64,000 nt of DNA, from contig FN648111.1 in NCBI GenBank assembly GCA_000310025.1, positions 124,001-188,000 on the forward strand. The letters are read 5' to 3'. Origin of the DNA: Ectocarpus siliculosus. Lineage: Eukaryota; Sar; Phaeophyceae; Ectocarpales; Ectocarpaceae. A model generated the notes under the pieces. That model saw only the letters and a list, made by a program, of their open reading frames with translations, made no database searches and was not told the DNA's origin. A program made the position numbers and the translations under genes. Positions 16,550 through 61,196 of the stretch are shown here, piece after piece. Position 1 is the first letter of the stretch. Each line of letters begins with the position of its first letter.

Positions 16550-17794
16550 GAAGCCCAGGCCCCGTCTCTGTCGTATCCCAGTTCACGGACCACGCCGTAG
16601 CCTATATGCTTTCCATACCCATCAATGTACACAAATATCGTTGTCCGTGTAGACTTGCTCCCGCCCGTCCACCCCGCCGCCCGTCGACCGCTGGAACACG
16701 ATGGTCACAGGTGTTCTCATCCCTCTACTGCTGCCGTACATCACAAGTCGTCCTGTGTACCACAAACTGGCTGTCCTGTACCGGCTAGACCGCTAAAACA
16801 TCAATCAATGTCGAGGAACGCGCCGTTCCAATGGAAGACGCAAGCGCTGCAGGATTGCTACCCAGCCGCGCCTGTGGCTTGCAAGAACGCTGAGCATGTA
16901 ACTACAACTACCCAGTGCCACCGGGAAAACAAATCTACTTGTATATCTGCCAAGTATTGTATCTGCTGCTGTATTTTCCTATTTGCCAAATCATGTTATT
17001 GCCCAATCCACAACAGCGAATACCACTCGTTTACCCGCACGTCAAACGTCACTTCAAATGGTGAGGGGGAGGATAAGCCTCATCAAGGACCGGCTGTGAA
17101 TGATGAATTTCCCGCCTCGACCGTGTTCGCACGACCGACCCTCTTGCACGGCTCTTTCGTGGACAGGAGGGCCTCCAAGCCGAGAAACAGCAGTGCGCAG
17201 GTCATGCCGACCACTGTACAGCAAAGAACTAATCAGCTACCATGCTTCCGCGAAACCCGGTACCCCTCTGACGCATCTAGAAACTCAACAAGCCAAGAAG
17301 TGAGACACGGGCTTCACTGGTGGTGCAATCTACGTACGTCCCCAGCTGCGGGCCAGGAATCTACTGATTCGGTTCAGGGGCGTTATATCCGTTTTGCGAC
17401 TGTAGGCGTGACCGGGGCGACAGAAAACGGTGAAAGCCGACTCAAGCCCGGTCGCGGTAGTCTCCGCTTGAGGCGCCAGGAGGAAGCCAGAATCAATGGT
17501 CTTGGCCCATCAGCGTGGGGCCTCCGGGTCAATTCCTGAGTCTTTGTCTTGTGCACAATTTTCTGCCAACCAAATCCCCCGGTAAACAGTTTTCTGCCGT
17601 TTGATGACTTCTAAAACCCAAGACGCCTCACTCGCACGACAATTGGGCGGATGCCTACATTGATTCCTGCCCTCTTGGTTGTGTTGCCAGCATCTATAAT
17701 AGCGTGCGAATGATGACGGAAGTCACATGATGCATGGCCGTGACATCCTGCCAATAATTTCGACCCATGCACCCACCGACCCATCGCCGAACCT
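16550..17794. repeat. 3' flank of gene A, shared with gene B flank
   Basis: Similar to 52420-53760, so the segmental duplication that produced genes A and B extends about 1.2 kb past their stop codons. About 400 bases (roughly 16771-17181) are inverted relative to the other copy. A third, weaker copy of 17405-17625 occurs at 34988-35230. A 304-aa ORF (16625-17539) has no recognisable domain, is broken in the other copy and is not called a gene. Confidence 0.8.
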
Positions 17795-18058
17795 CTACGA
17801 CACTAGGGCTGGTCTCGTCTGATCGTACCACGCAGACTCATGCTCCTTCAACACCCACTGTACTGCCGCGTCGCCGTCACGCCTCTGCACCTGGACCATT
17901 TTCTGCTCGAAAAACACAAACTCCGGTGAGCTAGGAGGGGCGCGGCGCTCTCTGTTAGCCTTCTTCGTCGCCTTGGCAATCTCAAGGCGAGCAGTGTCTT
18001 CCACCCCGTGGATGAACTCCCGCAGAGAGGTATACGCTGCTGCGTTCAGCTGAGCTGC
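17795..18058 (-). CDS. Gene A exon 16 (terminal)
   Basis: 264 bases with the stop codon at 17795-17797. Encodes the charged C-terminus (SLREFIHGVEDTARLEIAKA). Same length in gene B. Confidence 0.8.
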   Translation of the reverse strand, partial: AAQLNAAAYTSLREFIHGVEDTARLEIAKATKKANRERRAPPSSPEFVFFEQKMVQVQRRDGDAAVQWVLKEHESAWYDQTRPALVS

Positions 18059-21000
18059 CTGCATTCATGGGTGGAACATCGGGGGTGTATGGGGGTTAGT
18101 CGGGGGGGGTAGGAGGACGACCGAATAAACTCATTAGTTCAGAATCAACGAAGCTACCAGCAGCCACTCGGTACAGACCTGTACTTTTCACAGCAGATGT
18201 GGGCAGATGACAAGCCTAGTGGAGGGTAATTTGCAAAGCTTGTGGATAGGTTGTCAGAAACCAGTCGTGGCCACACACCTGGGTTTTCGCGGCTGCATCT
18301 ACGCCACCATCGTCGAGAGTTAGCCCTGCCAGCTGAGCCTCCAGCATGCTCTCCATGCTCCCCAATGCCGCCGAAAACGTTTCTTCGGCAAGAGCACCGG
18401 CCCCCGACAGAGGTGCCGCAGCTATCGCGGCCAACGTGGCGCATACCACCTGCAGTACAAACGTCGCCACGCTCACCGACATGCGGAACCAAGTACGGGG
18501 GTGCTGGATATCGTAGCCCTGGCCGTTGGGCCCACACGGCACAAGCCGATGTGTTGCGGCACATACCAGAAACAGTCGCATTTTCGTCTTGAAGACCCCC
18601 TTTCCCTGCTTGAAGTCGTCCTCTCGCCATTGGCCCAGTCGTTTGACCCAACAATCAGGTGCTTGCTCCTCGTCGGACAGGCCGTGACCTTGCGCGAAGT
18701 CCCACGGGGGAAGGACGCATGCCCTGCGAGGTGTATCGAACCCTTCGCGTCTCATCGCCATCATCATCACAACGAGGAAGTCGAGCCTACCCATCACCCC
18801 ATCGTCTGCATCGATCATGTCCACCAAGCGCGTGTCCACGGCTCCAATCCGCTCTCGTACATCCTGGTGCTGTTGTCCCACTTGCTGCTGGAGGTCGTTA
18901 ACTAACCGTTCAAGCCTCGCAACCTCGGCTGAAGCAACGCTAGCGGTGCTCCCAGCAGCCTCCCCGCCGATCGGCCCTCTGGCGCCGCGAAGCATGTCGC
19001 CCATTTCTTCTTTCACGCCGTCCCACCATGCGTCGAATCGTCGCTGGGCTTGTTCAGGATGGAGGCCTCGCGCTGCCTGATTAACGTATCGAGAGGACGG
19101 CTATCACTTATGCACAGACATTTGATACACTGCTGATACGACGTCCCTCGCTTTTCGGCGTGAGGTTGCATCGCCAGCTGAGCTACGATACGGAAGCTCG
19201 ATGGAACTGAAACAAGTTCGTTTCCAGACTCCCGAAAACAACACCCAACACCAAGAGGAAAAAAAAACTAGACTGGCAACAAGGTGTAGAGAGTTCGGTG
19301 GATATGAGCCGATGTCGAGCACCGATTCCGAAACTTTTGGGGCGCTCATACCGGGGAAAGCGTATGGAAAGAACGAGCGGGCTCCCCCAACTAGTGCAAC
19401 AAGGGTACACCGTAAAGCACCATAGAACCAGCGTCCCTAATACCATCAGCTACACTGTCCTGCGTACACAGTGCTTGTTGGCGTCCACTGCCCACGCTTG
19501 TGACCAGGGCCGAGCACACACACGCAAGATCAGGTGCGTGAAAAGCCGACCAAATCTCACCTCTGGACGAAGGACAGGATATCGGTCCTGCGCTTGAACT
19601 AATCTCCCGGCCACCTCCTGGAAAATCTTGTCTGGAGTACAGGAGAAATAGGAACGTGGGCCAGGAAGTTGCCTTGTGAGAAGTGACTTGGCACTCAACA
19701 GCTACAATCTTGCCGCCAAAGGAAAAATACACTATTTAGCGAGGCACAGGTAAAGGCACAACATGGACCCACAAAGAAACACGTCAACGCGTTGTCGAAC
19801 TTTGTCTTCCGGCAACCGACCATAGCACTCATATGATAAATTAATCAACGAGGCTAGGTGCGCGGTGGCCTCAACTCGTTCGCGGAGCACATACAGTTAC
19901 GCCCATCGTCTACGTAGATGCTAGAGTATCGTAAGGATGTAGGGACGACATCCAAACCAGCGCCGATGGTCGGAAAGTGATCCGAAGACGACGTGTTGTG
20001 GAACGCTTCCGTGAGCGCCGGGTGCCCGGTTTAATCAGAGAGGTGCAACTCGCCACCCTCACGCGCACCTACGCATTCATGTACGTCGACGATCTCCAAG
20101 AGGGACATCGCCGCCGCCCCCAGTCCTCCGGTCTTTGAGTCGCAAAGGCTGCAAGTCGCTCCAAACAAGCTCTTGTCGCCAGGTCGAGTCGCCTGCTGTA
20201 CGAGACATACAAGCCGGTCGTTCGGTAGAGTTTCGTAGATGCAATACAATCAATAGATAGGTTCACAGGAGGTTGAGAGTTTCACGAAGCGCGCGAACGA
20301 CGTGTGGAGCGCCAAGCACCAACTGAAACCCCGACAAAAGGCGTTGACGCTGCCACCAGTAGACTGCTGCCGCTATGCTGAATTTAGCAACCGAAGTGTG
20401 TCCTCTACAGGATGCCCGCAGGAGAAACAACAGAAGCAGCTACAAACTCACCGCCTTGCTGATCTGCATGTCTTGCTCATGCTGAGGGCATTTGAGGGCG
20501 GCGCGCCATCGCAGCCCCGGAAACTCCGAGCACATCGCCTGAAACACCGAGATGCCAAACGATAGCGCTGCCCAGGGAGCGGCGGTACTGATGCTGCCGT
20601 ACACCTTCATGTCGACCTCACACTTGTCGTGCGAGTATTCTACCACTAAGGCAAAGGTCCTGGCGGCGATGCCCCCACCTAGACTGCCTTGCACCAGCAC
20701 GCCAAAGCGCCAAAATGTTCGGAGCGTGCCTAGCCTGCAGCATCGCGTGAGCATCTTTTCGATGGCCCCAGGGGGCACGCCAAGGAAAACTTTCCACTTC
20801 ACGCTCAGCACGGCTGTATGGTCGCGGCGGAAGTCGTCCAGCTCCTTGCCTACATCTTCAGGGCGTTTTTCATCGAGTCTGAGAAGAACGACCAACCCCT
20901 CGGCGGGATCATCGTCTAGTGGGTACGTGAGTCCCAGCGAATCAAGCGCGGGGAGGACGTAGTTGCTAAGACCATCAGGCCACAGCACTCTGGCAAGCGA

Positions 21001-24000
21001 CGGTTCGAGGACACCGTGTCCTTTCAGTCTATTCCAAGACGCGATGTGCTTGTCCTCCTTCAGCGTGATGCCTGTGTCGCCCAGGGACACGTCGCCACGA
21101 AGTGGATCCTCATCGTCCCTGTGGTTCAGGAGCGGCTTCAGGATTTGGGCCAGCCACGTTACGTCAAGAAAGACGTAAGTCTCGTGCCGGACCAGGGAAC
21201 CCTCGTGCTCTCTGTGGACACGGGCGTATCGCGGCAAGCAAGAAACGAACGAGATGTATTGCAATGGCATGTGAAAAGAGGAATAAGATAAATGATGTTA
21301 GCATGTGCCAAGCCGCTCGCGAGCAGCACCTAAAAGAAGAAAGAAGCAGTAGCTCCAAATGGTGTTGACAAACGGAGGGGGATCCCATACAGTGTTGACA
21401 AGCGGAGGGGGGAAATCAACCGAAACCGTTTCTGGTACAGGTCCAAGCCAACCCCGGAGTGCTGAAAAAACTCGATTCACCCAATGTCGTATCGGCCACA
21501 TGCTCTCCAAACCAGTACGACATCATTTTCTCCTGCGGGACTACGGGGTCGGTGGGAGGGCGGTATTCCATTCTTGGTGACCCTTTGAGCACATTCTCCC
21601 TATTTTCCCGCAACAGGTAGATACTAATGGTAGTTTCTTTTTGTTGCGACCCGTTGGGCCAAGTTGTCCGCTGGAGTTCTGTTTACAACATCTTATTGCT
21701 TGCATTCGTACGAGCAGGCCGCCGCTTCACGCGGTTCAGCATACCTGATAAGGAGTGCGCCTTCCAAAGCGTGGTCAGGTTTGACGACTGATACTCCGTC
21801 TCCTTCAAGAGCTGCAACTACTTCATTCCATTTCGTCGAAAGGTCTGCCCGGGTTAGACCTCCTACGCCCTGGTTGCGCTGGTAGACTGCGGGGACGACC
21901 TCTGTGGCGCCTTTCGGTCCACCCGATGCGAGCACATTCTGTTGGGCCGATTCTACGGGGTTCCTGCAAATGTCGCCAAGAGAAGCTCGGTTGACACGGA
22001 TTTAATGACAACAGTGCACACAAGCACAAACAATAGCCATACACAGCTCTGCTGGGTTACAACACAAGGTAGAGTTCAATGGGATACCGAGGCGACCAGA
22101 AACATGATTCCAAGCTGGATAAAATAATCGATTAGCTCAGCGTTGAACTTGCCTGCCGCTCCCGAGAGCATCAAGCACCTCAAGAGCGATATTCCAGCTG
22201 CGAGGGAGCACGAGGGATGCACCTCGAACGTTACCCTTGCTGTTGTACATGACCCGGTGAAGCAAACTCGGCTGAGATTCGACGCTCACTCCCTCGCGCC
22301 AGTCGCAGGCCCACGTTGAGTCCTCATCCGGACTCTTCCTCTTCCCCAACGCAGCGCCTCCATCCTCGTTAGGGGTTGGCGGGAAGCAGCTCGTAAGGCT
22401 CACCCCATCCTCCACATGGACAGCGTTCATTCCAGCACCAGACCAACTCTCTAGCCACTCCCCAATAGCGCCTTCAATCCTCCCCGCCGCATCAGTGCCC
22501 ATTCCGGCTGCGAGATCGCATTTGGTTGCGACCACGACGACGTCGCTATCGGGAATGCGAAACGATAACGAGCGCAACCAATCGCACACACGCAGTTCTT
22601 GGAGCTTGCTCAGGTCTTTCTTCAGCTGGTCGCTGTGGATCAAAGTACCGTCCCGCTGCCCGAACGCACCGAGGTCGCACACGAGGAGACTCACGGCTCG
22701 AGGCGAGAGGAACATCTGCAGCAGCCCTGTATAGGCGACCTGGCCCAAGTGGGAAGGAAAGTGGGTGTATCGTTCGGATTACACAGGTTCGCAAAAACAA
22801 GTCACAAGGGATTGCACACCAATGGAGGGCGAGTATGTCGATTGTTCCCTTGATATCGATGAAAATGGTGGACAAAGACGTATGTGGTACTAAGGGGGGG
22901 CTTACTCATTGGTTTCTCTTGTGCTTCACGGCGGAAAACGCGCTGCCGGCGCCGCCATACGCGACATCCTATGTATTATAGCACTATGGGAGGACAGCCG
23001 CAAGACGTTCACCTGCCCTGCGCAATCGTACACCCGGAGGGTGACGCCATTGACGTCCATCTGCTCGACATCGATCTGGACCGTACTTTCCTCGGATCCA
23101 CTGGTAGGTGTAGGTCGCCCAGTCCTCAAGCTCTGTCGCAAGCTGCCCGAAACAAAACAGATACTTTGTTGTGGTTGGGGACTACTAACGCAAAACAAGG
23201 CGACAGCAAACACAATAGAGATTCAAGGTCTCCCTCCCCCCCCAAGAATGCATGCAGTCTTCGTTTGGACGAAAAACAAAGCATTGGATCCTGTGCCCCG
23301 GGCACATTGAAAACAGAGATATGTATTTCCTACCTGTTTCAGCGTATCGTGCAGCAAACCTCATCAACCATGTGGGGATGTGCAAATCGTGCTGAACGAG
23401 TTAGGGGACACTGGGGAGGAGATCAGCCATATGCTGTGGATTGGACACACTTGACTCCGCTCTAGTTCAACGACGCCAATCAACAGGTAGCGGGCAAACA
23501 TCTATCGCCAAGACTACCAGCATCATCAAAGACGAATAGCGACACCCGACTCACCTAGTTTTCCCGGCACCCTCTTGTCCGACAAGAACGACCTTGATCA
23601 TTTTTCGCCCGACAGGAGCGATGCCTTCTGCAAACAGATCCGTGAAGTACTCTTGCACTGCTGAAATCCCCTTGCTCACAACCGCTTCTGGTGGTTCTTG
23701 CCACGGGTTTTCGTGGACCAGAAATCCCAGCCGTGAAAGCGTCGCCAGCAGTGCTTCCAGCTGCTTCGGCAGAGCATTGCCGGCTGCAGCATAGGTATGA
23801 CACGGCAGGAAACGTACTTGGCCAATGGGTATCACGATCAAGCAATAGATCATAGCAATGCCGCAAACGTCACTTGGACACGGCGACGGAACTGCTTTAG
23901 TGTACTCGGCTACGCTACAGTCATGTCGCCGAGCGGCTGTGGTGTTGGCCCTTTGCCCGCGATGGAACCCTAGATCCATCCGCATCAACCCAATTCGCAG

Positions 24001-27000
24001 GGGCGTCGAGCCGTGCGTCAAAAAATGACGGGAAACTTATGTACATAGTCTACTGTAGAGGGTGCAGCAGACACGAGTTACGTTCGGCTACATATGCACA
24101 TTTTTGTAGTGTTTGGCAGCGGATGACGCTAGCGTCAACTTTCTCACCGTGCCCAATACAATACGCAAGTTAAACCCTCGTCCCTAGGTACAGCACCGTT
24201 GCTGGTTTTCGACTCAGAAGCCAAATCTTGCTTTTCCCGCTGACTGGTGTTGGTAGTGCGGTGCAGTTTTCTCGTTCCTTCAAAAAAGCGGTTACCGCGG
24301 ATACCCCAGAGCCCCGTGGCATACACAACTAATGCGAGCAGTCGACGTATGCGCGAACAACTCGAGTCCTTGTGACGTTTGCTCCGCAATGTTCACACAA
24401 CTTCGATTAGAAATCTACAGAAACACGCCAGACCTAAAGCATACACGGGCAATTTCAACCTCTCCTTGTTGCCCTGACGTACCCAAGTTACCTTGCAGCA
24501 AGTCTTCGTCTGGTAAAACGTCTGTGCAGTGGTCCCAGAAAGCTGGAGAGCACAAACAACACGAGGGGAGGGGAAACGTGATCGTCGGATGTCGGATGTG
24601 CAGGCAGTCGAGGCAGAGGAACATGGTATTCTTCATGACGGATCTATACAATTCGACCGGAAGCCGAGACGACATGGACCCATGCCATTTGTCGACTGAA
24701 ATTTAAGATCGTCGAGGCTAAGCTGGGCCCTCTCTGGAACAAAGCAATGGTGGATAGGAAAAGAGTGATCGTACACACAATAATGCCCCACATTCCTGTG
24801 GGCATACTCGCCGGCCTGCACTGGTTGTCTCCTTCACCCACTCGTGTCTTTTGCGACCCATGTACGCCCGAAATATTGCCGCTGATGTCCACTTTCGGAC
24901 CTCGAAAGTCAACCTTCACGTCACCTTACAGCAGAATGTCGAACTATAGCGGACCGTTTGCCGGACGTCAATATTCCGCATCGTGTACAACCGAAACCCG
25001 CAAAAGGGCGGGGAGAGACTGAAACCAGCATGGAATTTGGCTGGTTCGACTTGCTGATAGACAGTCGTCGCAATAAACACTTTCCCCCCAACTCAACAGA
25101 ACTGTATTGGAAACGATTCGATTCATTATAATGCCCATGTTTGTCTATTTGCCCTACCCCAGATCGTGCGATCCGCAGAAATCGAGCAGTTCCCCTCTGA
25201 CTTGTCAGTGGGGTTTGAATGCCACTGCCCAAAACAGTTGCGTGACGTTCTGTTGATATTATTTAAGGACTGAAATCACTACAAGTTTGAGTGCTATTGG
25301 AGCTAAAAAGGCCGATTGGGTCACTCTTGCACAACCTCCAGGTCAAAATTCTAATTGCGCTACAGTAGTGCGCCTTCCCCCTACGATTGATTCGCGTCGT
25401 TCTATTTCGCGACAACTACTGCGCGAAATCCGAATCATCTACAGTATTGCGATATCGAGTAGCCTCCAACCCACTGGTGATGGTCTGTGCGGGAAACGGG
25501 GATAAACATGAAGTATGTGCATTCTACATCCTTGTCGAATTGGCCATCTCACCGTCGTGATCCTCCCTGGTGGGTTGGGTTGGGTCTGTATTGAATTTTG
25601 ACTGAGCAACAAATGGCCCAACATGGACGGGTCTCCACTCAAACGGGGGAAAGCGGTGTGTGACAGAAAATACGCAATTCCGAAGTGTTTGGGGATATTT
25701 CCAGCCTACAGTCCACAACTTACACAAGCGGATACGCCATGATGGGGGCGGAGTCCATTTGGTCTCAAGTCGAGCCCAAGTGCACAAGCATCCATGTCCG
25801 TCGTATGTAGGATTGCGATCGTGATGCCCCAAGACGTCAAGAACCGCACTGGAAGAGCGGGTGGCAATATGGGATGCGTACGTAACGAACCCCATGTTAC
25901 CCCAACAGAGCGGATATTCCCCCGTTCGTCTGCATTCCCACCCCTATTCTGCCGTTCGCTGTTTGCGTCAGGTAGCACAGAGTACGATGCCGCCCGATCT
26001 GGGCTTTTCCTAGTGGAAGAATTGATATTCAGGTGATGTCCACCGAGCATCCGAGCGAAAAACGTATTCTTGCGCTCGGCGACTTTCGCAGAAAAAAACA
26101 TCACCTTCATGTCGGCTCAGTTACCTCCAGGCCCACATCCCTCGCAGGCACTCGGCAACACTCGGGCCGTCGGTCGTATCTTCCTCAACGACACCATCCT
26201 CCTATCGCATAAACTCTTTTGAGTGAAAGCGCCCCATGTGCAACGTAACTTTCTTCTGAATGCTGGGCAAACGCGCTAGACGCATCTAGCCCATCCCTCT
26301 TCACGTCTCTTACCTGTCAGCTGGTTATTGGAGAGACCAAGCCACGCAAGGTTGGTGAGGGCGGCCAGCTCCTTGGGGATGGAACCTGAGCAACCATGGC
26401 ACCAGCAAAACTTTGACACGTTGGAGACCATAGAAAACATAAACCACAAAATATCTGGTGCCACACGCGCTCGCAGTCAGCTGACAGCATGTGCACCAAT
26501 ACCTGCGCGCCATCACGTCCCTCGACTTTGCCCCCCATCATTGTTTACTTCTATTGCGAAAAAAAAACATTTTTTCCACAAAAACAATATAAAAAAATGG
26601 TCCAAACGGTCCGCATCTACCTCACAAAGGGCGCTGCACCACACGATCAGTTGTTCGCACGTCCCTGGGTATGGTCGTAACGTGCGTTCGAGGAGGGGAC
26701 TACCCGCGAGCACGTGCGCATTGTTTTTGGGATTCAATGGGGCCATTTGCATCTCACGGTCGACCGGTAAGGCGATACGTCGATCATGATGCTCCCCGAA
26801 ATTCGTTGGGACGTTGTAGCGGTTTGTTGCATCACTTGCAATGATCAGAAAGGAGCAAGTCTCCGACAAAAATATAGGAAAAGAGCACACAAGCGATAAC
26901 AACGCACAAGTCACGTTTTCCAGAGCGTACACAGTCTACACACTCCACGTTGCGGACGGGAAAGCGGGTGTCGACTAACAACATCTCGCATCGTCCTCCG

Positions 27001-30000
27001 TTAGTTGCGAGGCGTTGTCGAATCACAGCACAGTCAGCGTGTGTTCTGTGTGCCGGTCGTGGTAATCCTATGGCACTAAAACCGAAGTGGACATATAAAG
27101 TCATTGACAGTGCCTATTCTGGTGTACTCCATTCGTCTGGTTGTTACTTTTGTCGCCCACATTGCGGTCAGGCGACGTCGCGCACGATACTGGCCGATCT
27201 GGGATTGCAAGTTGGAAAAAACCATTTTGCCCGGCATAAGATGCAAACATGATGTCAAGTAAATGACATCCTTTCAATGGTTCGGAATGAACGTATCATG
27301 ATGGTTCTTGGCAACACTCGTTGATAAAAGAATCGTGGTCAATTTGGCTTCCACCACATCCAGACCGAACCCCGCAAGCGCTCAACAACACTCGAACATC
27401 CACCCGTATCATCGTGAACGGTACCACCTCACTGTTGTAGTCAGTACTACTTCATCAAAGCTCCGGACCCGTGTACATGGCAAGACCTTTCTGGACCTCA
27501 TGGGGAAAACACGAAAGATGCGTCTAGTCCACGCTCCTTACCTGTTAGCTGGTTCTTCATCAGGTTAAGGAACTTAAGGTTGGTGAGGGCGCCCAGCTCC
27601 GTGGGGATGGTACCTGCACGACCATGGCAACAGTACAAGCCTGGAAATGTCAGAAACCGTAGCAAAACACACATGCCTTGTGTCACACGCGCCCGCTGGA
27701 AACTGACTGAATATGTACCACGGGCTGTGTCAAATTGCGCCCTTTCGACTTTACCCCACGATCGTTTCCTTCTCTTCTCACACTAATACCGGGAAACGGC
27801 CAAGTGATGGGTATCCGCTTTCAAAGAACGTCGCGACGATACACTTGTCTTCAGTTGCTGAGTGAGGTAGCAAGGTGTGTTCGGGAGAGGGAATAACTGC
27901 GAGCACGCATACATTCCATTCGGATGTTAAAGGGCCCATTCGTTCCTCACGGTAAACCGGTGAAGCGTTCAATCGATCATGATGCTCCTCGATAGGTGGT
28001 CGCATGGGACGTTGACGGATGTCCCCGAAGACCGTTGGGACATACTGAAGTTCTGTGAGATAATTTGAACTGGGCGAAAAGGAGCGAGACCTCGGCTCAA
28101 CGATGGAAAACAGCACACAAACGATAAAAACGTACAACTCACGTTTCCAGGGGGAACACAGTCTATCCTCCACCACGCGGAAGGGAAAAGCGGGTATAAA
28201 GTTTTGCGTGGTGCTTCATGCTCTGTTAGGCCCAAGACGTTGTCGAATCATACCACTGTCAGGGTCCGTTCTGTGAACAGGTCATGGAGGTCTTTCCAAT
28301 GAATCATAGCCCGAACTAGTCAACTTTAGGTGATGGACGGTGAGTATTGGTGGGAGACCCCCGTTCGTCAGTGGCCTCTCTTTGCCGTCAGGTGAGGTCG
28401 CGCACGATACTGGCCGATCCGGCATTGACACGTTTACAAACCACCTTGCCCAGGATCCAAACGCGATGTTCAGACAAGGACGATCTCACCATGTTTCCGA
28501 GTGAATGAATAGCGATGGTCCTTGGCAACACTCGTTGCTTCCACCTTACCCAGGCCCACATCCCTCGCAAGCGCTCAACAACACTCGAACATCCACCGGT
28601 ATTATCCTGAACGACATCATCTTCCCTCCTATGATTCTGCCTGGTCCATGATTTGGATCAACCGTCCCTACACGTTGTAGGCACTTTCTGGACCAAAGGG
28701 GTAAACACGGTGGACACGTGTTAGCTCACGCCTCTTCGCTCCGCTTACCCGTTAGCTGGTTGTCTCCGAGGAAAAGACTCTTGAGGTTGGTGAGGGCGCC
28801 CAGCTCCTTGGGGATGGAACCTGCGTGGTCATTTTAACCGGTAAAAGCTTAGACGTGTTGAAGACCATAGCAAACAAACAACTTGTCTGGCTGTTAACTG
28901 ACAGAAAATGCAGCATTAGATAATCCAATCACGCCCTTTCCAATCTATCCCCTTCGGATGTATCCTCCTCGTAGTCTAAAACTTTCGAAAACCAACAGGT
29001 AAAGCCCGAAATGCGCGATTTCGACTGAACGAACGGCCAGCCGTACCACACGGTACAGCTGCCTTCAAGGCGCTCAGTAAGGTGACAATGTGTGTTCGAG
29101 AAAGAGACAAACCACGAGCTCGTCTGCATTCCATCCGGGTATATATGAGGCTATTCGTTTCTTACGGTAGACCTGTGACGCGTTCAATCTCAATCGATCA
29201 TGACTCTCTTTCGGAGGGTGGGTTGGGGCAAAATCAACTGGTGATAACAGCCTGTGAGACAAGTTGAAATTGTACAAAGGGAGTGGGTCTGCCGCCTAAA
29301 CTCATCGGACGAATTGCACACAGATGGGTAAAACGCACCCTAGAAGTGATCGAGGGCGCACACAGTCTACATACGCGCCCAAACGCGTTGCGGAGTGGAA
29401 ACACGGGTATCGAGCTATACCCTGGTGCATCGTGCTCTGTAAGGCACAAGTGGGGTCGAATCACACCAGAATCAGTGTCCGTTCCGTGTACCAGTGTTGG
29501 TGTTTCCAGGGCATCATAACCAAAGTGGACACAGTAGTCATGGGCGGTAGGTCCTTATTTGTCTACTTCCTATTCGAGTCGCCTCCCTTCGCAGTCAGGC
29601 GACGTCAGGACGATACCTACCGATCTGGGATAGGACAAGTTGGGACAAACACTGTTTTGCCCGGCACAAGTTCCAACGTGTCACGATAATGACCTCCTCT
29701 CCATGTTTCCGAGTGCTTGGCAACACTCATTGAATATTCGTGATCAATTGTATTCTAACACATCAAAGGCCAACCCCGCAGGCGCTCAACAACACTCGAA
29801 CATTCACCCGTATCATCCTGAACGACACCATCCTCCCTGGTGAGATCGAATCTCGTCATGCTATGGAGTGCAACCGCCCCGTGTACGTTCAAGGCACTTC
29901 CTGGATCTGAAGAGGAACACACGGCGGACACATCTTAGCTCACGCTTCTTCGCTCCACTTACCCGTTAGCTGGTTGAATCCGAGGTCAAGCTCCTTGAGG

Positions 30001-33000
30001 TTGGTAAGGGCGGCCAGCTCCTTTGGGATGGAACCTGCGCGGCCATGGTACCGGTGAATGCTTGGACATGTTGGAGACCATAGCAAACACGTCACATGCC
30101 TGGTGTCACATACGCCGGTTTATCAGTGAACATGCGGCATTGGAAAATCCAGTCACGCCCTTTCCAATCTACCCCCTTCGGATGTTTCCTCCTCGTAATC
30201 TCGATTTGCAACAAATATCGGGTAAAGCCCCAAACGTGCGATTTCGACTGAACGAACGGCCAGCCGTACCACACGATACAGTTGTCTTCAAGTCGCTCAG
30301 TAAGGTGACAATGTGTGTTCGAGAACGGGACAAACCACGAGCTCGTCTGCATTCCATTCGGGTATTGATGACGCCATTCGTTTCTTACGATAGACCTGTG
30401 ACGCGTTCAATCTCAATCGATCATAACTCTCTTACGGAGGGGTGGTTGGGACAATATTTACTGGCGATAACAGCCTGTGAGACCAGTTGAACTTGTACAA
30501 CGGGAGTGAGTCTGCCGCCTAAACTCATCGGACGAATTGCACACAAATGGGGAAAACGCACAATACGAGTGATCGAGGGCGCACACAGTCTACACACCGG
30601 CCCAAACGCGTTGCGGAGTGGGAACACGGGTATCGAGCTATTCCCTAGTGCATCGTGTTCTGTAAGGCAGAGACGGTGTCGAATCACGCCAGAGTCAAGT
30701 GTCCATTCTGTGTACCAGTCTTGGTGTTGCCAGGGCGTCAAAAACCAAAGTGGATAAAATATGGTCATGGGCGGTGGGTACTTGTACACCGCATTTGTCT
30801 GCTTCCTATGTTCGAGTCGCCCCCCCTTGCCGTCAGGTGGCGTGGGGCACGATTCTGGCCGGTTGACAAGTTGGGTCAAACACTGTTTTTGTCCTGCACA
30901 AGTTCCAACGTGCAGTAACGATGGTGACCTCCTCTCCATGTTTCCGAGTGCTTAGCAACACTCGTTGATGAAGCAATCACGAACGATTGTACTTCCAACA
31001 CATCCAGACCCAACGCCATCGGCACTCAACAACACTCGAACAGCCACCCGTATCACCCTGAACGACACGATCCTCCCTGGTGAGATCCTACCTCGTCAAC
31101 GCGTTGAAGTGCAACCGCCTCGAATACGTTGGAGGCACGTTCTGGACCAAAAGGGGAAAACGCGGTGGACGCCTCTTAGCTCACGCTTCTTCGCTCCACT
31201 TACCCGTTAGGTGGATGGTGTGGAGCGAAAGGCTCTTGAGGTTGGTAAGGGCGGCCAGCTCCTTGGGGGTGGAACCTGCGCGGCCATGGTACCGGTGAAT
31301 GCTTGGACATGTTGGAGACCATAGCAAACACGTCACATGCCTGGTGTCACATACGCCGGTTTATCAGTGAACATGCGGCATTGGAAAATCCAGTCACGCC
31401 CTTTCCAATCTACCCCCTTCGGATGTTTCCTCCTCGTAATCTCGATTTGCAACAAATTTCGGGTAAAGCCCCAAACGTGCGATTTCGACTGAACGAACGG
31501 CCAGCCGTACCACACGATACAGTTGTCGTCAAGTCGCTCAGTAAGGTGACAATGTGTGTTCGAGAACGGGACAAACCACGAGCTCGTCTGCATTCCATTC
31601 GGGTATTGATGACGCCATTCGTTTCTTACGGTAGACCTGTGACGCGTTCAATCTCAATCGATCATAACTCTCTTACGGAGGGGTGGTTGGGACAATATTT
31701 ACTGGCGATAACAGCCTGTGAGACCAGTTGAACTTGTACAACGGGAGTGAGTCTGCCGCCTAAACTCATCGGACGAATTGCACACAAATGGGGAAAACGC
31801 ACAATACGAGTGATCGAGGGCGCACACAGTCTACACACCGGCCCAAACGCGTTGCGGAGTGGGAACACGGGTATCGAGCTATTCCCTAGTGCATCGTGTT
31901 CTGTAAGGCAGAGACGGTGTCGAATCACGCCAGAGTCAAGTGTCCATTCTGTGTACCAGTCTTGGTGTTGCCAGGGCGTCAAAAACCAAAGTGGATAAAA
32001 TATGGTCATGGGCGGTGGGTACTTGTACACCGCATTTGTCTGCTTCCTATGTTCGAGTCGCCCCCCCTTGCCGTCAGGTGGCGTGGGGCACGATTCTGGC
32101 CGGTTGACAAGTTGGGACAAACACTGTTTTGTCCAGCACAAGTTCCAACGTGCAGTAACGATGGTGACCTCCTCTCCATGTTTCCGAGTGCTTAGCAACA
32201 CTCGTTGATGAAGCAATCACGAACGATTGTACTTCCAATACACCCAGACCCAACGCCATCGGATTCGACCATTCACCCGTATCATCCTGATCGACACCAT
32301 CCTCCCTGGTGAGATCCCACCTCGTCAACGCTTTGAGTGCAACCGCCTCGAATACGTTGGAGGCACGTTCTGGACCAAAAGGGGGAAACGCGGTGGACGC
32401 CTCTTAGCTCACGCTTCTTCGCTTCGCTTACCCGTTAGGCGGTTGGAGTCGAGGCAAAGGCTCTTGAGGTTGGTGAGGGTGCCTAGCTCCTTGGGGATGG
32501 AACCTGCGCGGCCATGGCACCGGTAATAGCTTGGACATGTTGGAGACCATAGCAAACACGTCACATGCCTGGTGTCGCACGTACCCCGTTCACTGACAGA
32601 ATATGCAGCAATAACTTTGTGAAATGACGCCCGTTCCACTTAGTTGTGTTCCTCTCGTCTCACATCGCAACGAAAAATGGGCAACCATTCGAATGGTAGG
32701 CATGCACTGAACAAAGGGTTCAGCGTCACATGATACAGTTGTTTTGATTTCATCGACAGTGTGGCATTGAGAATAAGCGCCGTCCGTAGCCTNNNNNNNN
32801 NNNNNNNNNNNNNNNNNNNNNNNNNNNNNNNNNNNNNNNNNNNNNNNNNNATAAGCGCCGTCCGTGGCATAAACAGTGTGGCACACGAAGGCTACTGTTT
32901 AACTCACGGACGGCGCTTATTCTCGTCGACCCCATTTGTCTGCTTTCTATTCGAGTCGCCACCCTTTGCAGCGAGGCGACGTCAGGACGATACATACCGA

Positions 33001-34374
33001 CCTGGGCTTGACTTGACAAGTTGGGAAAACCCAACCTTGCCCAGCATAAGTTTCGACGTGAATGGATCAGGCCGGATTCGAGAGTAGGCCACCAAACCTC
33101 GGCGAACTGCAGGGAAACAATCCGAAGTGAATGCTTGCAGACGCTGGTGGGTCCAATGAATGAAAAGGAAACCCAAGGCTTCTAGTGCCCATTTCGTGTC
33201 ACTTGAAGGACCATATATATCCAGGTCCTCGTTTCCACCGCCGCTTGTCAACTACTTTCAAAATAATGCATGGCACTCCCTACCCCTGATGACGGGTGCG
33301 AAAGCACCATACCTCTACTACATCACACGGCGTTATTAAATACACGCAGGAAGAGGCAAAACTACTGCGCGAAGTACGGACTGGAGAGTGCCGACTGCGG
33401 GGTGTGGAGTTCAACAACAGTACCTCCAAGTGCACAGCCGTGGTTGATAACGTCGCGGGCACTAAAAAACGAGCATGCAGTCCACGAACTGACGCGTGCT
33501 GACAATGGGTTGAAACACTACGCAGCGAGGGCATCGACATAGATGACGAAATCGGAATCCTGTACTACTCCGTATGGAACATAGTGCACGAGGTCTAACA
33601 GCTGCGCGGGCAAGCTGAGAGAATGTTGCGTGTGCAGAGAGAGATTTCGACTCAATGTGTATTGACTGACAAAGAGAGAGAGGGGGTGATTTGTGCGGGC
33701 TTACATTCTAGGGAGAGGGAGGCAGACAGCAGGCATGGGGAGAGAGAGAGAGAAACGTAGCCAGACCTCGTCAAGCTGCAGGGTGATAGGAGAATAACCC
33801 ACTGACACTCAGAGTCGCAACGTCCACTACGTGTTGCTGGAAATATCACACCTATATTCACCCAGTCACTACACTACACCTGGCATGCTTCAAAGTCATC
33901 AGCAACACCACCTCTACCGATGGGGGTTAAGAGTACGTCGCACTCTTGGCCAGTAGCTTCGAGGCGGTGGCGGACGATGAAAACCAGAAAACCATTGCGG
34001 GATGATTCTCCAAACGACATCAAGGAGTGGATCCCGTTCAGAACGCCCGAATCAACTACGACTGGGAACGTGGGTTTTGCTTCAACTTGCAGCTGTTAAA
34101 GGGGTATACGTTAAGAGGGCTTTAGTTCGATGCATGGCCAGGGAAGGCCGGGAGCAACGTAAGAGAGAAGCGTATGTACACGGAGTAGGGCAACCATACC
34201 TCGAAGATTGTTCTTAGGAAGGCTTAGCTCCACGACACGACCCTGGCCGTCGACCTTGATCCCGTACCATGTGGAAAGCTCTGCCGTCGTGTTCCAGTTG
34301 TCGTTTCTCTCCCAACCAGTCCCGTCGGTCAAAAGAAAGATGGCTACCAGCACCTCACGATCCGTCGCAGCCAT
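17795..34374 (-). CDS. Gene A: LRR-ROCO GTPase (1263 aa, 16 exons)
   Basis: A receptor-like GTPase of the ROCO family. Sixteen exons join in phase to 1264 codons including stop: 34200-34374; LRRs 32432-32503, 31204-31275, 29963-30034, 28749-28820, 27542-27613, 26314-26385; ROC 23555-23783, 23013-23142, 22153-22739; COR 21745-21963, 20452-21211; then 20069-20195, 19561-19631, 18279-19076, 17795-18058. Residues 1-58 cap the LRRs, 59-202 are six 24-residue LRRs, about 250-450 ROC (P-loop GQEGAGKT 271-278, G3 DCAGQ 318-322, G4 TKCD 394-397), about 520-840 COR, then a coiled coil near 950-1000. No kinase domain. Known: Ectocarpus LRR-ROCO proteins are proposed pathogen receptors with exon-shuffled LRRs. 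One intron has a GC donor. No signal peptide, so probably cytosolic (inference). Every intron phase agrees. Confidence 0.88.
18279..19076 (-). CDS. Gene A exon 15 (coiled coil)
   Basis: 798 bases, phase 0 at both ends. Encodes a coiled coil (VARLERLVNDLQQQVGQQHQ), a conserved middle with CAATHRLVPCGPNGQGYDI, and a hydrophobic Ala-rich stretch (FVLQVVCATLAAIAAAPL) that may be a buried or membrane-associated helix. Confidence 0.8.
19561..19631 (-). CDS. Gene A exon 14
   Basis: 71 bases, acceptor CTCCAG|ACAAG, donor CCAGAG|GTGAGA. Encodes KIFQEVAGRLVQAQDRYPV. Identical length in gene B. Confidence 0.75.
20069..20195 (-). CDS. Gene A exon 13 (post-COR)
   Basis: 127 bases, acceptor GTACAG|CAGGCG, donor GTAG|GTGCGC. 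Encodes a short Cys-containing segment (CSLCDSKTGG). Assigned because length and phase fit and gene B has the same 127-base reading. Confidence 0.7.
20452..21211 (-). CDS. Gene A COR exon 2
   Basis: 760 bases. Encodes the winged-helix-like COR body (YVFLDVTWLAQILKPLLNH, LWPDGLSNYVLPALD, EGLVVLLRL). Donor GCG|GTGAGT, phase 0. Confidence 0.85.
21745..21963 (-). CDS. Gene A COR exon 1
   Basis: 219 bases, acceptor TTGCAG|GAACC, donor ATCAG|GTATGC. Encodes the first part of the COR dimerisation region. The gene B equivalent has a 13-base deletion. Confidence 0.85.
22153..22739 (-). CDS. Gene A ROC exon with G4; GC donor
   Basis: 587 bases. Encodes VAYTGLLQMFLSPRAVSLLV, the base-recognition motif TKCD (for NKxD), then a Ser/Pro-rich loop and the start of COR. 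The only frame-consistent donor is GGCAG|GCAAGT, a GC-AG intron; gene B has GGCAG|GCGAGT at the same place. Confidence 0.85.
23013..23142 (-). CDS. Gene A ROC exon with switch II
   Basis: 130 bases. Continues SLRQSL after the P-loop and ends exactly at the G3 motif DCAGQ, donor CAG|GTGAAC. The usual aromatic residue (DFAGQ, DTAGQ) is Cys here. Confidence 0.88.
23555..23783 (-). CDS. Gene A ROC exon with P-loop
   Basis: Begins after CTGCAG. Encodes the linker helix (LPKQLEALLATLSRLG), the family-typical ENPWQEPPEAVV segment, then the first strand of the GTPase and the Walker A loop GQEGAGKT. Donor AACTAG|GTGAGT splits the next Ser codon. Confidence 0.88.
23784..26313. other. Gene A intron, 2.5 kb, old cassette remains
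   Basis: No further exon recognised. Positions 25970-26215 resemble 59960-60200 beside gene B and include the conserved intronic block found next to LRR exons, so this intron starts as an LRR cassette. The rest is unassigned. Confidence 0.6.
26314..26385 (-). CDS. Gene A LRR exon 6
   Basis: 72 bases, phase 1. Core reads LAWLGLSNNQL. Donor GTAAGA. Joins in phase to the ROC exon at 23783, so no further exon is required, though one in the 2.5-kb intron cannot be excluded. Confidence 0.88.
27542..27613 (-). CDS. Gene A LRR exon 5
   Basis: 72 bases, phase 1. Core reads LKFLNLMKNQL; first segment GTIPTELGALTN. Donor GTAAGG. Confidence 0.88.
28749..28820 (-). CDS. Gene A LRR exon 4
   Basis: 72 bases, phase 1. 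Core reads LKSLFLGDNQL. Donor GG|GTAAGC, acceptor CGCAG|GTTCC. Confidence 0.88.
29963..30034 (-). CDS. Gene A LRR exon 3
   Basis: 72 bases, phase 1. Core reads LKELDLGFNQL. Donor GTAAGT. The intron on its acceptor side is nearly identical to that of LRR exon 2, while the exons differ strongly. Confidence 0.88.
30035..32264. repeat. Recent tandem duplication of one cassette intron
   Basis: Positions 30035-31023 and 31276-32264 are nearly identical over about 990 bases at an offset of 1241. I saw only about ten differences. The identity starts directly at the exon edge. Confidence 0.88.
31204..31275 (-). CDS. Gene A LRR exon 2 (degenerate core)
   Basis: 72 bases, phase 1. Core reads LKSLSLHTIHL: the structural Asn of LxLxxN is replaced by Ile and the first strand has STPKEL instead of SIPKEL. 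This repeat may be structurally weaker than its neighbours. Confidence 0.85.
32432..32503 (-). CDS. Gene A LRR exon 1
   Basis: 72 bases, phase 1 at both ends. Variable core reads LKSLCLDSNRL. Acceptor CGCAG|GTTCC, donor GG|GTAAGC. Confidence 0.88.
32769..32924. mobile_element. Foldback/MITE insertion with 19-bp TIRs
   Basis: GAGAATAAGCGCCGTCCGT at 32769-32787 is the exact inverse of 32906-32924. Inside, 32851-32920 folds back on itself (16 bp plus 7 bp of stem around a 16-base loop). It interrupts cassette intron sequence, which resumes with CCATTTGTCTGCTTTCTATT. The centre is hidden by the N gap. Confidence 0.75.
32793..32850. other. Assembly gap, 58 N
   Basis: A run of N. Both flanks carry the same ATAAGCGCCGTCCGT sequence in direct orientation, so the assembly probably failed on the foldback element. 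True length unknown. Confidence 1.
33060..34199. other. First intron of gene A, 5' portion
   Basis: Leaves the cassette homology at about 33080. Holds GA microsatellites (33671-33686, 33737-33755). No additional LRR exon was seen. Confidence 0.6.
34200..34374 (-). CDS. Gene A exon 1: LRR N-terminal cap
   Basis: Starts with ATG at 34374. Encodes a cap typical of these proteins: a helix (EVLVAIFLLTDG), the W...NWNT segment, then the half repeat VVELSLPKNNLR. Donor G|GTATGG leaves phase 1, matching every LRR exon. Confidence 0.88.
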
Positions 34375-41981: not shown

Positions 41982-43575
41982 CAGCAGGTGACAGCGCGGG
42001 CGGAGATCGTCCGTTGTTCAAGGTGTCGGTGCAGGCGCAGGTGAGTTTTATTTTCCGCGTGGGTGTGAGGTTTTGCGAAGGCCTGCCTGTAGGGAGGCGC
42101 ATTCGGCGCGAGTTAGGTGAAGGCAAAACATCTTCCCTCACAAGCTTTTGTACACCAGACCTGTCGCTCGAGGACGGCACATCGCACTGCTGTTGGGCTC
42201 GCGTACGCTACCGTCAGACAAGCGCGTCCTGAGGCGTCAGACATAGCGCGTGGCATGCCACCCGGCGCGACGACCAGTTGATCGAGGAGGAGCCAGTACA
42301 CTTGGAGGCGTGAGGCAGAGCCGTCTGTGTGTCTTGTGTTCGAAAGTTGACTTTTCGCGTCGCGCGCGTTGGAACATGTTCAAATATTGGGTAACTTCAA
42401 TATCGGAACAAGCGGCGCTTGTTGCTTTTCTTTTGGGTCCGGAGGGGCCACTCGCGCTTTGGTTTGTGATCGTCATTTCACCCCGGCGGCAGCAGTCGCA
42501 TTGCCAATGTTGTCTCACGCGCGAGATTACGCGACAACGATGTTTTGCGATAGAAGAAGGAGGCGTTCGCTGCATTTGCTAGCACGATGACGAACGCTAC
42601 ACGAATATTTGCTTTTCACGAGCCGATCAAGTTCATCCGCGGACCGATAGCAGCAGTGTGGCTTAAAAAAAAAACAGTGTTTATATACATATTCGTGACT
42701 TGTGGCGTTTACGTATTTCCGTGGGGTATGCATATGCACGGCGGCACACGGGGAGCGAATGCACAACACCTCAAGTACAAGTACGGGCACTGTCGGCCGT
42801 AAGAGCGCCCGTAAGGGGCGGCAGGCACTTTGTAGCCGAGTTCATGTAAACGCACATACGCCCGTACCGGACAGAAAATTCGAGCACAAACGACAGAGCA
42901 CAGGGTACGCACACACGGTACAACCTGGTCGAAGGTCCCCAGAAACAATTTCGGGTACAAACGACAGAGCACAGGGTACGCACGAACGATCAACGTGGGT
43001 AAAGGCCCCGCACACACAAAATACCTCACTGCACATTGAGAACCACTCACGCCTACGCACAGCGGGATGTGGGCCGAGTTGTTCCCGCACGCGCATGCAC
43101 ACGTACATGGTAGAAGCACGCACATACGAGGGCACACATCGCGAGGTTTCGAGTCGTTGCTCGTCATAGGCATACGGCGCGATTGACGAGCGGTACAGAC
43201 ACGAGGGGCGAACACGCACAGGGTACATACGGCGGTATGCGCACGTGAGAACTCGTTAACCCGGAAATGGACACAAGCGAGCGAGTATAATCACCGAGTT
43301 CGATTCGGGCGAATGCACTTGAGCTTAGTACAGGCGCACGTACGACGCAGGGTACACGTGTCGAAGGGGGGCGAGTTTATATATTAGGCTCTCCTTTCGC
43401 TGATTTTTCCCATAAACACCGGCACGTTGGACAAAGTAAAAAAAAAAATGAGCCGGGCACGACGCACTTGCACAGCACGTTCAATGACGTCACACGTTTC
43501 CCTCTTCCTTTTCGCATGCCTTGTCTCATTGGTACTTTATGCGGCACGTAGTGGTCGACGAGGTTCTCGCGCATC
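41982..43575. other. Intergenic before the retrotransposon
   Basis: A direct repeat of about 35 bases (ACGACAGAGCACAGGGTACG core) occurs at 42879 and 42950. Probably contains the unrecognised left terminal repeat of the retrotransposon. No gene recognised. Confidence 0.5.
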
Positions 43576-44268
43576 ATGGAGTACATCCCGGACCTCGGGA
43601 GGGCGATGGACATTGGGCCCGAGGGATGTGCCACGTTGATAACCCACATGAGCGCTGAGCTACGCGAGCTTGATAAGCTGGCAGGTCAAGACGTTACCAC
43701 ATTCAAGAAGGAGCGCGAGTTCACGGCCATGTTGGTGGCCATGATAGATCATTCTGTGTTAGGACAAGACCCCATAGCCGGATGCATGGCGCTTTATCAA
43801 GAGTTAGCGGCTTCATCTGAGAAAAGCAGCGCGGTGGACTATGAGGCTCTGCGCAAAACGTTCAAAGAGGCACTGTTGCAGGCAGGGTTGACCAAGCAGC
43901 CCAATTGGGGCGGCTTGGGCGGCGGTAGTGGAGGCTTGATGGCAGGTGGCATGCAACCACTGGCTTTGGCGCCGGCGTTCCATGCATTAGCACCCGCTTT
44001 TCCCTCTATTTCGCAACAGCACGCACAGCCCACGCACAGGGGTTTCGGGCACTACGGGCCGTCGCACAATAGGGTTAGCGGTCGTGGTTTCGGCGGGAAC
44101 CGTCGGTTTGGCCGAGTTGGTAAAAGAGCAGGAAGAGGAGGTGCCGCCGTCTGTGGTAAATGTTCGCAGATGGGAAAGTCCGCTGACCATTCTTTCAGGA
44201 CGTGCCCGGAGCAAGCGTGTTTCAAGTGCGGCATGCCGGGCCACATAAAGCGTGAATGCCCGAATTAA
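43576..44268 (+). CDS. Gag-like protein with two zinc knuckles
   Basis: 230-aa open frame. A helical N-terminal part is followed by a Gly/Arg-rich region and two CCHC-like knuckles at the C-terminus: CGKCSQMGKSADHSFRTC and CFKCGMPGHIKREC. Expected to package the element RNA. It is the only intact ORF of the element. Confidence 0.75.
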   Translation: MEYIPDLGRAMDIGPEGCATLITHMSAELRELDKLAGQDVTTFKKEREFTAMLVAMIDHSVLGQDPIAGCMALYQELAASSEKSSAVDYEALRKTFKEALLQAGLTKQPNWGGLGGGSGGLMAGGMQPLALAPAFHALAPAFPSISQQHAQPTHRGFGHYGPSHNRVSGRGFGGNRRFGRVGKRAGRGGAAVCGKCSQMGKSADHSFRTCPEQACFKCGMPGHIKRECPN

Positions 44269-44693: not shown

Positions 44694-46271
44694 ATGTACC
44701 TCAGGTGGTCACGAGGTGTGGATATCAGACAATTTTTTGACCCGGATAAGGACGAGGAATTTCAAGGACAGAAGTACAAAGGTTCGGAATTGACGCCCGT
44801 GGAGCTACCGAACCATGTGCCGGAGGCGTTCACAGGTTTGGTGGAGGAGCAGGTGGAAAAGTACGTGCAGAGTGGAGTGGTAGCGCCGAGGGAGGAAGTA
44901 GCCGACGTTTCAAAACACCCCAAACCGCACATGTTGATACCGCTAGGGGTGGAAGAGTCCAAACCACGAGCATTCTTAGACGCACGTTGGCTCAACCTGA
45001 TGGGTAGGAAAATTCCTTTCAAGATGGATGCGGTAGGAAAGGTAGCATAATGCGCGTGGACAGGAGCTTTCCAGATGACGTGCGACCACAAGTCGGGTTT
45101 TCACCATGTACCGTTGGCGAAGGAATCATGGCAGTACGTTGGCTTCAAGTGGGGTGGCAGGTACTTCGTGTGTACGACCCTGTGCTTCGGGTGGTGCTCT
45201 TAGCCATGCATTAATCATTCTCTTTCGGCGGTGGTGTCGAGGTACTTCAGGACAAAAGGCATTCCAACACTCACGTGGGTCGATGATTTATATTTCACAA
45301 ACTTCCGTTCCACTCGCGGATTGGAGCCAGTGCAGCAGAAGCAGGCTGACAGGGTGGCAGGATACTTGGTCATGACCGTGTTTTACAAGGCGGGGTATTT
45401 AATGTCCACACCAAAATGTGAGCTCGAAGCGACCAGCAGACAGATCTATTTAGGAGTGGTGTGTGACTCAAAGAAGCAGAAGTTCATTATTCTGGAAGAA
45501 AAACTGGCGAAGTTGGAGATAATCCTCACCGAGGCACTGACCCGAGGAGATATTTCGTTTCAGGCTTTGGAAAAGCTCGCAGGGAAGTGTACAAGAACAT
45601 CAGTCGCGTGTCCAGCGGGAGCTCTATATACGCACCACATGTACAAGCACAACGGGATGTTTCAGAGAAACGGCGGACGGAAGAGAAACATGGACATTGA
45701 CGTCCCCAAGAACGGCGGTTTGCGCTTTGAGATGGCGAAGTGGTTGGAGGTACGAGAGAGGATGAACGGAGCAGCGTGGTACGCAGCACGGCACCAAAAA
45801 CTGACGATAGTGGGGGCGTCGGACGCATCGTCGACCGGATGGGGCGGCCTGATTCGATGCCCAGGCGAAGATGTGTTTCGCGTAGCGGGTGATTTCCCAG
45901 ACGATTGGACAACACAGCACATTAACGAGCAAGAAGCGTACGCGATTCGACAGCTCTTGGTCTTGTACTGTCAGCAAAGACCAACAAAGGTGCAAGGTTC
46001 AACGTTGGTCGTGGATGTAGACAATCAAGCAATTTTCTACGCGTTGCGGAACGGGAAGTCTTCAAACACTCGTTTGCACGAGATTGTGGAGGAGTTCTTT
46101 TGGCTACAAGTGCAGGCGAATTTCACCCTCAACGTACAGTGGGTGTGTTCGAAGGCGAACGCAGAGGCGGACGATTTGTCGCGTCCTGACGTAGATGCGT
46201 ACGTTCGGTCGAGGAAGAAAAATTCGCAGAATTTTGGCGGTGGGTTGGTAGACCTTTCGACATGGATTTGA
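44694..46271 (+). pseudogene. Reverse transcriptase-RNase H, two in-frame stops
   Basis: RT begins near VEKYVQSGVVAP and continues with KPRAFLDARWLN, DHKSGFHHVPL and the catalytic box WVDDLYF. RNase H follows: GASDASSTGWGG, a Glu in NEQEAYAIRQLL, DVDNQAIFYAL and NAEADDLSRPD. In-frame stops TAA (45048-45050) and TAG (45201-45203) interrupt the RT between motifs. Confidence 0.82.
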
Positions 46272-46516: not shown

Positions 46517-46742
46517 CGAGCGGTTGTGATAGTGCCAAACCAACACAAATCCTGGTATCCGATGCTAGCACACGCCACAGTACGGTCTTACACGATAGCC
46601 ACACAAGCGGAGGGATCGGTATTCTATCGAATGCACCATCAGCGAGGGAAGGTGTCCTTTGCTTTTAAGGGGTGGGCTATGCGAGTGGTGGAGGTGAACT
46701 TCGCCGATAAATAATTAGATGATTATTGTGTTACGTTAATGT

Positions 46743-59700: not shown

Positions 59701-59818
59701 GCTTCTGGTGGTTCTTGCCACGGGTTTTTGTGGACATATAGCCCAAGCTGTGATAGCGTCGCCAGCAGTGCTTCCAGTTGTTTCGGAAGTGAGTTACTAG
59801 CTGCGGTGTACGGGCAGG

Positions 59819-61124: not shown

Positions 61125-61196
61125 CTGTAAGCCGGTTGTAGGCGAGGTCACGCCTCTCGAGGTCGGTGAGGGCGCCCAGCTCCTTGGGGATGGAAC
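61125..61196 (-). pseudogene. Gene B sole LRR exon
   Basis: 72 bases, phase 1, acceptor CGCAG|GTTCC, donor GTGAGT. Core reads LERRDLAYNRL, distinct from all six repeats of gene A. Confidence 0.85.

What the first reader, a model, noticed from the sequence alone, without database searches (positions are those of the whole stretch)
29963..31275. Hypervariable LRR exons inside near-identical introns
Introns 30035-31023 and 31276-32264 are almost identical, so these cassettes were copied recently. Yet the LRR exons at 29963-30034 and 31204-31275 differ at about 15 of 72 bases. The changes cluster in codons for the exposed beta-strand (LKELDLGFNQL against LKSLSLHTIHL), and the structural Leu codons are mostly kept. 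The third exon (32432) also differs at about ten positions from its neighbour although its flanks are about 95 percent identical. Established: exon shuffling and diversifying selection were proposed for Ectocarpus LRR-ROCO genes. The contrast between frozen introns and changing exons suggests either strong selection or a focused diversification process such as conversion from a donor.
Basis: partly seen in the sequence, partly recalled or inferred. Interest (0 to 1): 0.85.

Follow-up and report, generated by a model that had tools for sequence, protein, structure and literature searches.

The report
Fast-evolving repeat exons, candidate receptor gene
A candidate immune-receptor gene resembling those of brown algae carries a row of copied exons whose binding-surface codons change fast while the rest stays stable; this is already known for such genes, and the most striking pair looks extreme mainly because one exon is a patchwork of its two neighbours.

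Summary
The numbers are right, but half the story is a comparison effect. Exons 29963-30034 (E4) and 31204-31275 (E5) differ at 15 of 72 bases; introns 30035-31023 and 31276-32264 differ at 8 of 988. They belong to a minus-strand LRR-ROCO-type gene (Pfam Roc 8.5e-13). E5 is a mosaic: bases 1-41 and the upstream intron match E4; bases 42-72 and the downstream intron match E6 (32432-32503). Against its nearest relatives E5 shows 8 differences, not 15; about 2.4 are expected. The remaining excess fits diversifying selection: in 14 matched cassette pairs of this genome, the four codons named in print differ at 81/168 bases, against 982/4212 intron, 95/840 other exon and 22/156 fourfold synonymous bases. 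Synonymous sites inside the variable half are not raised (7/51) and no donor lay within 3 mismatches, so a focused diversification process is not supported. Published work already reports exon shuffling and positive selection in brown-algal ROCO LRRs; the within-exon mosaic and the intron yardstick are the added detail.

The parts
34200..34374 (-). First coding exon (ATG to donor GT), N-terminal cap of the LRR domain
   Evidence: Open frame with ATG and GT donor, joins in frame to E6; no transcript evidence
32432..32503 (-). LRR exon E6
   Evidence: 72 bp between AG and GT, LRR consensus
31204..31275 (-). LRR exon E5, mosaic: bases 1-41 like E4, bases 42-72 like E6; lacks the usual I at residue 2 and N at residue 20
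   Evidence: Mosaic scan; nearest tail among 99 exons is E6; residue counts
29963..30034 (-). LRR exon E4
28749..28820 (-). LRR exon E3
27542..27613 (-). LRR exon E2
26314..26385 (-). LRR exon E1
30035..31023 (-). Young intron tract, partner of 31276-32264
   Evidence: 8 differences in 988 aligned bases
31276..32264 (-). Young intron tract, partner of 30035-31023
   Evidence: 8 differences in 988 aligned bases
31024..31203 (-). Older part of the same intron, next to E5; partner of 32265-32431
   Evidence: 11 differences in 167 aligned bases, 13 gap columns
23555..23783 (-). Exon with LRR end and P-loop of the Roc GTPase (acceptor inferred)
   Evidence: Spliced protein matches Pfam Roc 8.5e-13
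23013..23142 (-). Roc exon, DCAGQ motif
22140..22739 (-). Roc exon, 3' part (end of exon not settled)
20443..21297 (-). Open frame with a weak COR-B match, below Pfam's cut-off
   Evidence: E 0.0034, 17.6 bits against cut-off 27

Best explanation
This is the LRR part of an LRR-ROCO receptor-like GTPase gene in which each of the six repeats found is its own 72-bp exon in the same phase. Cassettes (exon plus about 1.2 kb of intron) arise by unequal exchange, and the array is later partly homogenised by gene conversion or further exchange. One young tract of about 1,030 bp runs from within the intron to about base 29-41 of exon E4/E5. It ties the conserved scaffold half of E5 to E4, while the variable half of E5 stays with the E6 lineage. 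On top of this, diversifying selection on the four concave-face codons (14, 16, 18, 19) drives amino-acid change faster than the intron clock, while structural Leu/Asn codons stay put. Shown here: the mosaic, the tract boundary, the excess at the four codons over several arrays, and no excess at synonymous sites. Inferred: exchange or conversion as the copying process, positive selection as the cause, ligand binding as the reason.
For: Mosaic: E5 against E4 2 differences in bases 1-41 and 13 in 42-72; against E6 5 and 6; one-breakpoint mosaic 8 differences, reverse order 11. Flanks switch the same way: E5/E4 1/170 upstream, 36/169 downstream; E6/E5 45/157 upstream, 10/158 downstream. Selected codons 11/12 against downstream flank 36/169, p = 1.3e-6. 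14 matched pairs: selected codons 81/168, intron 982/4212, rest of exon 95/840, fourfold sites 22/156; 12 of 14 pairs in the expected direction, Wilcoxon p = 0.0023. Fourfold sites in the variable half 7/51. Roc and LRR domains. Same four sites reported in print (passages of PMC11378527).
Against: Two C9f pairs show 0/12 and 1/12 changes at the selected codons. E5 lacks two near-invariant residues, which would also fit relaxed constraint on that exon. After mosaic correction the local excess is modest (p = 0.057 and 0.032). The 37 bases just beyond the variable half are identical in E4 and E5, so a tract spanning the exon is not fully excluded. No strain or population data; selection is inferred from paralogues within one genome.
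Confidence: 0.8

Rival explanations
1. A focused diversification process (local hypermutation, or conversion from a library of donor segments) rewrites the variable half of LRR exons while introns stay untouched.
For: 11 of 12 bases of the four codons differ between E4 and E5, and 37 identical bases follow the variable half, so the changed block looks like an island.
Against: Fourfold synonymous sites in the variable half are not raised (7/51; 0/4 in E5/E4 and 0/4 in E5/E6). No other copy of either tail within 3 mismatches in the assembly. The E5 tail is closest to neighbour E6, as simple descent predicts. The 30 bp after the exon are conserved in the listed pairs among E3-E6 (0-3 of 30), which explains the identical stretch.
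Confidence: 0.05
2. E5 is a decaying exon under relaxed constraint, and its changes are mostly neutral.
For: E5 has T at residue 2 (1 of 100 exons) and I at residue 20 (2 of 100) where I and N are the rule (the exon scan itself favours such residues).
Against: Frame, splice sites and Leu codons are intact. The fast codons are fast in other pairs too: without the E5/E4 pair, 70/156 against 945/3873 intron bases (subtracted). All five codons that differ between the E5 and E6 tails change the amino acid, though that alone is weak.
Confidence: 0.1
3. The near-identical introns are an assembly artefact (a false duplicate or a collapse).
For: A gap of 58 Ns lies nearby at 32793-32850 (count), and no reads are at hand.
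Against: The two introns differ by 19 substitutions and three indels, in two divergence classes, and their exons differ; a false duplicate would be uniform and carry the same exon.
Confidence: 0.05

Closest known systems
Brown-algal LRR-ROCO genes (Teng et al. 2024, PMC11378527: abstract and passages seen; Zambounis et al. 2012, PMC3341825: not held, recalled)
   Same: 72-bp in-phase exons each coding one LRR, followed by Roc; exon shuffling; the same four fast codons (14, 16, 18, 19).
   Different: The passages seen do not compare exon change with the introns of recent copies, nor describe an exon split into halves of different ancestry.
Tetrahymena 90-bp LRR exon genes (PMC6564038, passages seen)
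   Same: Arrays of LRR exons of one length in one phase; [quoted passage not shown]
   Different: 90-bp exons, a ciliate, and no Roc link in the passages seen.
Dscam alternative exon clusters (PMC3236188, PMC3364881: search listings only)
   Same: Tandem duplicated exons that diversify binding surfaces.
   Different: Ig-domain exons chosen by mutually exclusive splicing; splicing could not be tested here.
Lamprey VLR assembly (recalled)
   Same: LRR modules as the unit of variation.
   Different: No donor copy of the E4 or E5 tail was found within 3 mismatches.

Membership tests
LRR-ROCO (brown-algal type) | Roc GTPase domain in the same gene | tested here: met
   Pfam Roc 8.5e-13 on the spliced exons; exon joining is inferred
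LRR-ROCO (brown-algal type) | COR domain after Roc | tested here: inconclusive
   COR-B E 0.0034, below the curated cut-off
LRR-ROCO (brown-algal type) | One LRR per 72-bp exon, one phase | tested here: met
   Six exons in the gene; 100 in 14 of 15 stretches
LRR-ROCO (brown-algal type) | Fast change at codons 14, 16, 18, 19 | tested here: met
   81/168 against 982/4212 intron; 12 of 14 pairs
LRR-ROCO (brown-algal type) | Alternative splicing of LRR exons | not testable with these tools
   No transcripts at hand
LRR-ROCO (brown-algal type) | Genome of a brown alga | not testable with these tools
Donor-templated or targeted diversification | Donor copies of the variable segment | tested here: not met
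   Only the exon itself within 3 mismatches, for E5 and for E4; more distant donors not excluded
Donor-templated or targeted diversification | Synonymous sites in the target also raised | tested here: not met
   7/51 fourfold sites in the variable half, 14/99 in the other half; introns 982/4212

The most novel reading that the evidence does not exclude
Exchange between LRR cassettes breaks inside exons, between the scaffold half and the binding half. The genome then recombines half-repeats as well as whole exons, and conversion tracts that would erase the binding half stop there or are selected away. The boldest form, a germline or somatic process aimed at that junction, is not excluded by one assembly, though tract ends showed no general preference for exons (p = 0.31).
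Probability: 0.12. Interest if true: 0.65.

Novelty: new member of a known kind. Interest (0 to 1): 0.33.

Why it matters
If brown algae have rapidly evolving receptors, the introns between their repeat exons give a built-in clock for asking whether variation comes from selection or from a special mutational process. Here the clock points to selection plus ordinary copy exchange. The proposal that such algae build their repertoire by somatic recombination (from the 2012 paper, as cited in PMC11378527) gains no support from this array, but the array gives exact sites at which to test it.

Tried and rejected
Whole-exon comparison of E4 with E5 as a test of exon against intron: rejected after the mosaic scan. 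The idea that the young tract spans the whole exon with the variable half as an island (37 identical bases lie just beyond): not needed, because the 30 bp after the exon are conserved in the listed pairs among E3-E6 (2 or 3 of 30 in E6/E5, E6/E4, E4/E3, E5/E3), but not fully excluded. Donor search: negative. Whether tract ends prefer exons over matched intron places: negative, 55 exon pairs against 188 places, p = 0.31. A first pair filter on percent identity alone let in unrelated flanks (92 pairs) and was replaced by a score filter (55 of 4,950 pairs). Pfam on single open frames missed Roc; splicing showed it. Papers: Zambounis 2012 is not held. Searches for Ectocarpus with leucine-rich repeat and gene conversion and for LRR exon, exon duplication, gene conversion, hypervariable, intron listed nothing on this contrast in brown algae.

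Rows dropped before counts: 4 of 104 exon candidates (W 44990, C2 741644 and C26 5006816 as chance matches, C9e 5291962 at the end of a stretch). The exon scan asks for 7 of 9 consensus residues, so decayed exons are missed. Roc matches not followed upstream: four on C4, one each on C31, C19, C234, C33:920421 and C2:691463; the C109 stretch gave no exon. For most genes only 10-20 kb upstream was read.

Full report
What is there. On the minus strand a gene starts at 34374, carries six 72-bp LRR exons (E6 32432-32503, E5 31204-31275, E4 29963-30034, E3 28749-28820, E2 27542-27613, E1 26314-26385) and continues into a GTPase. Three GTPase exons, spliced, match Pfam Roc at 8.5e-13; the LRR part matches LRR_4 at 3.8e-22. 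Solved relatives by sequence include 4wnr (leucine-rich-repeat protein), 6hlu and 8r4b (Rab family protein, long chains) and LRRK2 structures. A COR-B match at 20443-21297 is weak. Two close Roc relatives lie on the same contig, 83% and 82% identical. Splice joints are inferred from sequence; there is no transcript evidence.

The observation. E4 and E5 differ at 15 of 72 bases. E6 and E5 differ at 11 of 72. The numbers in the finding are sound.

The mosaic. Along E5 in transcript sense, differences from E4 are 2 in bases 1-41 and 13 in bases 42-72; from E6 they are 5 and 6. A one-breakpoint mosaic, E4 then E6, leaves 8 differences for any breakpoint from 29 to 41; the opposite order leaves 11. 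The flanks agree: leaving out the 30 bp next to the exon, E5 and E4 differ at 1/170 upstream but 36/169 downstream, and E6 and E5 at 45/157 upstream but 10/158 downstream. Among 99 other LRR exons the tail of E5 is closest to that of E6 (6 differences; next best 9). The young tract therefore ends within the exon, and comparing the variable half of E5 with that of E4 steps across its end into sequence about 21% diverged.

How much excess remains. With the mosaic, 2/41 goes with an intron rate of 8/988 (p = 0.057) and 6/31 with 11/167 (p = 0.032): 8 seen, about 2.4 expected; against the whole intron, 8/72 and 19/1155, p = 8.6e-5. The naive contrast had p = 2e-13 (all). The five codons that differ between the E5 and E6 tails all change the amino acid (codons). 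At the four selected codons E4 and E5 still differ at 11/12 bases against 36/169 in the downstream flank (p = 1.3e-6). E5 lacks two near-invariant residues (T at residue 2, 1 of 100 exons; I at residue 20, 2 of 100), which hints at some relaxation.

All cassettes. I fetched stretches upstream of 13 further Roc matches and the neighbouring C43 array, and found 100 LRR exons in 14 of 15 joined stretches, the window included (4 of 104 candidates dropped). Of 4,950 pairs, 55 have both flanks homologous by score. Matched greedily so that no exon is used twice, 14 pairs remain: published selected codons differ at 81/168 (48%), distal intron at 982/4212 (23%), the 30 bp next to exons at 124/826 (15%), other exon bases at 95/840 (11%), fourfold synonymous sites at 22/156 (14%). 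In 12 of 14 pairs the codons exceed the intron (Wilcoxon p = 0.0023). All 55 pairs give 358/660, 4683/17438, 453/3300 and 117/576 for codons, intron, other exon and fourfold sites. Without the E5/E4 pair, by subtraction, the matched pairs give 70/156 against 945/3873. Against this reading: two C9f pairs show 0/12 and 1/12. The pairs share arrays and ancestry, so the test treats as separate what may be partly linked.

Selection or process. A process aimed at the DNA of the variable half should also hit synonymous sites there. Fourfold sites in that half, outside the selected codons, differ at 7/51 in the matched pairs, as in the other half (14/99), and at 39/188 and 73/375 over the 55 pairs; in E5/E4 and E5/E6 they are 0/4 each. 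In the window's own array, fourfold sites over the exon (25/95) equal introns (739/2921) rather than fall below them, so the claim is 'not raised', not 'lower'. No other copy of either tail exists within 3 mismatches. Tract ends do not prefer exons over matched intron places (p = 0.31). Diversifying selection on an array reshaped by ordinary unequal exchange or conversion is the simplest account.

Known or new. From the abstract and passages of PMC11378527: brown-algal ROCO genes have 72-bp in-phase LRR exons, exon shuffling, alternative splicing, and positive selection at sites 14, 16, 18 and 19 on the concave face. The 2012 paper by Zambounis and colleagues could not be read. Tetrahymena has a similar 90-bp LRR exon system in which recombination or conversion between exons is proposed (PMC6564038, passages). 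This array is a member of a known kind. The within-exon mosaic and the intron yardstick are added detail; the searches, in an open-licence library only, listed no paper on that contrast in brown algae, but most listed papers were not opened.

Noticed in passing
17444-23965 and 53407-59968: A direct segmental duplication, 86% identical over 6,658 aligned bases, gives a second Roc copy at 58133-58978; only one LRR exon of the 72-bp kind (61125-61196) was found for it inside the window.
   Followed up: partly
32769-32924: A 19-nt perfect inverted repeat with a second inverted repeat inside and a 58-base N gap (32793-32850) lies in the intron upstream of E6; it looks like a small inverted-repeat element whose middle did not assemble or is withheld.
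   Followed up: partly
L020, C9:4017783/4021896 and 4018003/4022115: LRR exon pairs whose selected codons are almost unchanged (1/12 and 0/12) though flanks differ by 22% and 14%: the opposite of the window pattern, as if homogenised or constrained.
   Followed up: no
L001, C43:25194 and 29989: Two LRR exons are followed by GC instead of GT at the donor site (GCAAGA), a second cassette type in the neighbouring array.
   Followed up: no
43552-44265, 45204-46268, 46740-47804, 8090-8998: Open frames with Pfam matches to a zinc knuckle, a weak reverse-transcriptase-like domain, an ALOG domain and RVT_1: transposable elements probably sit between and beside the ROCO copies.
   Followed up: no
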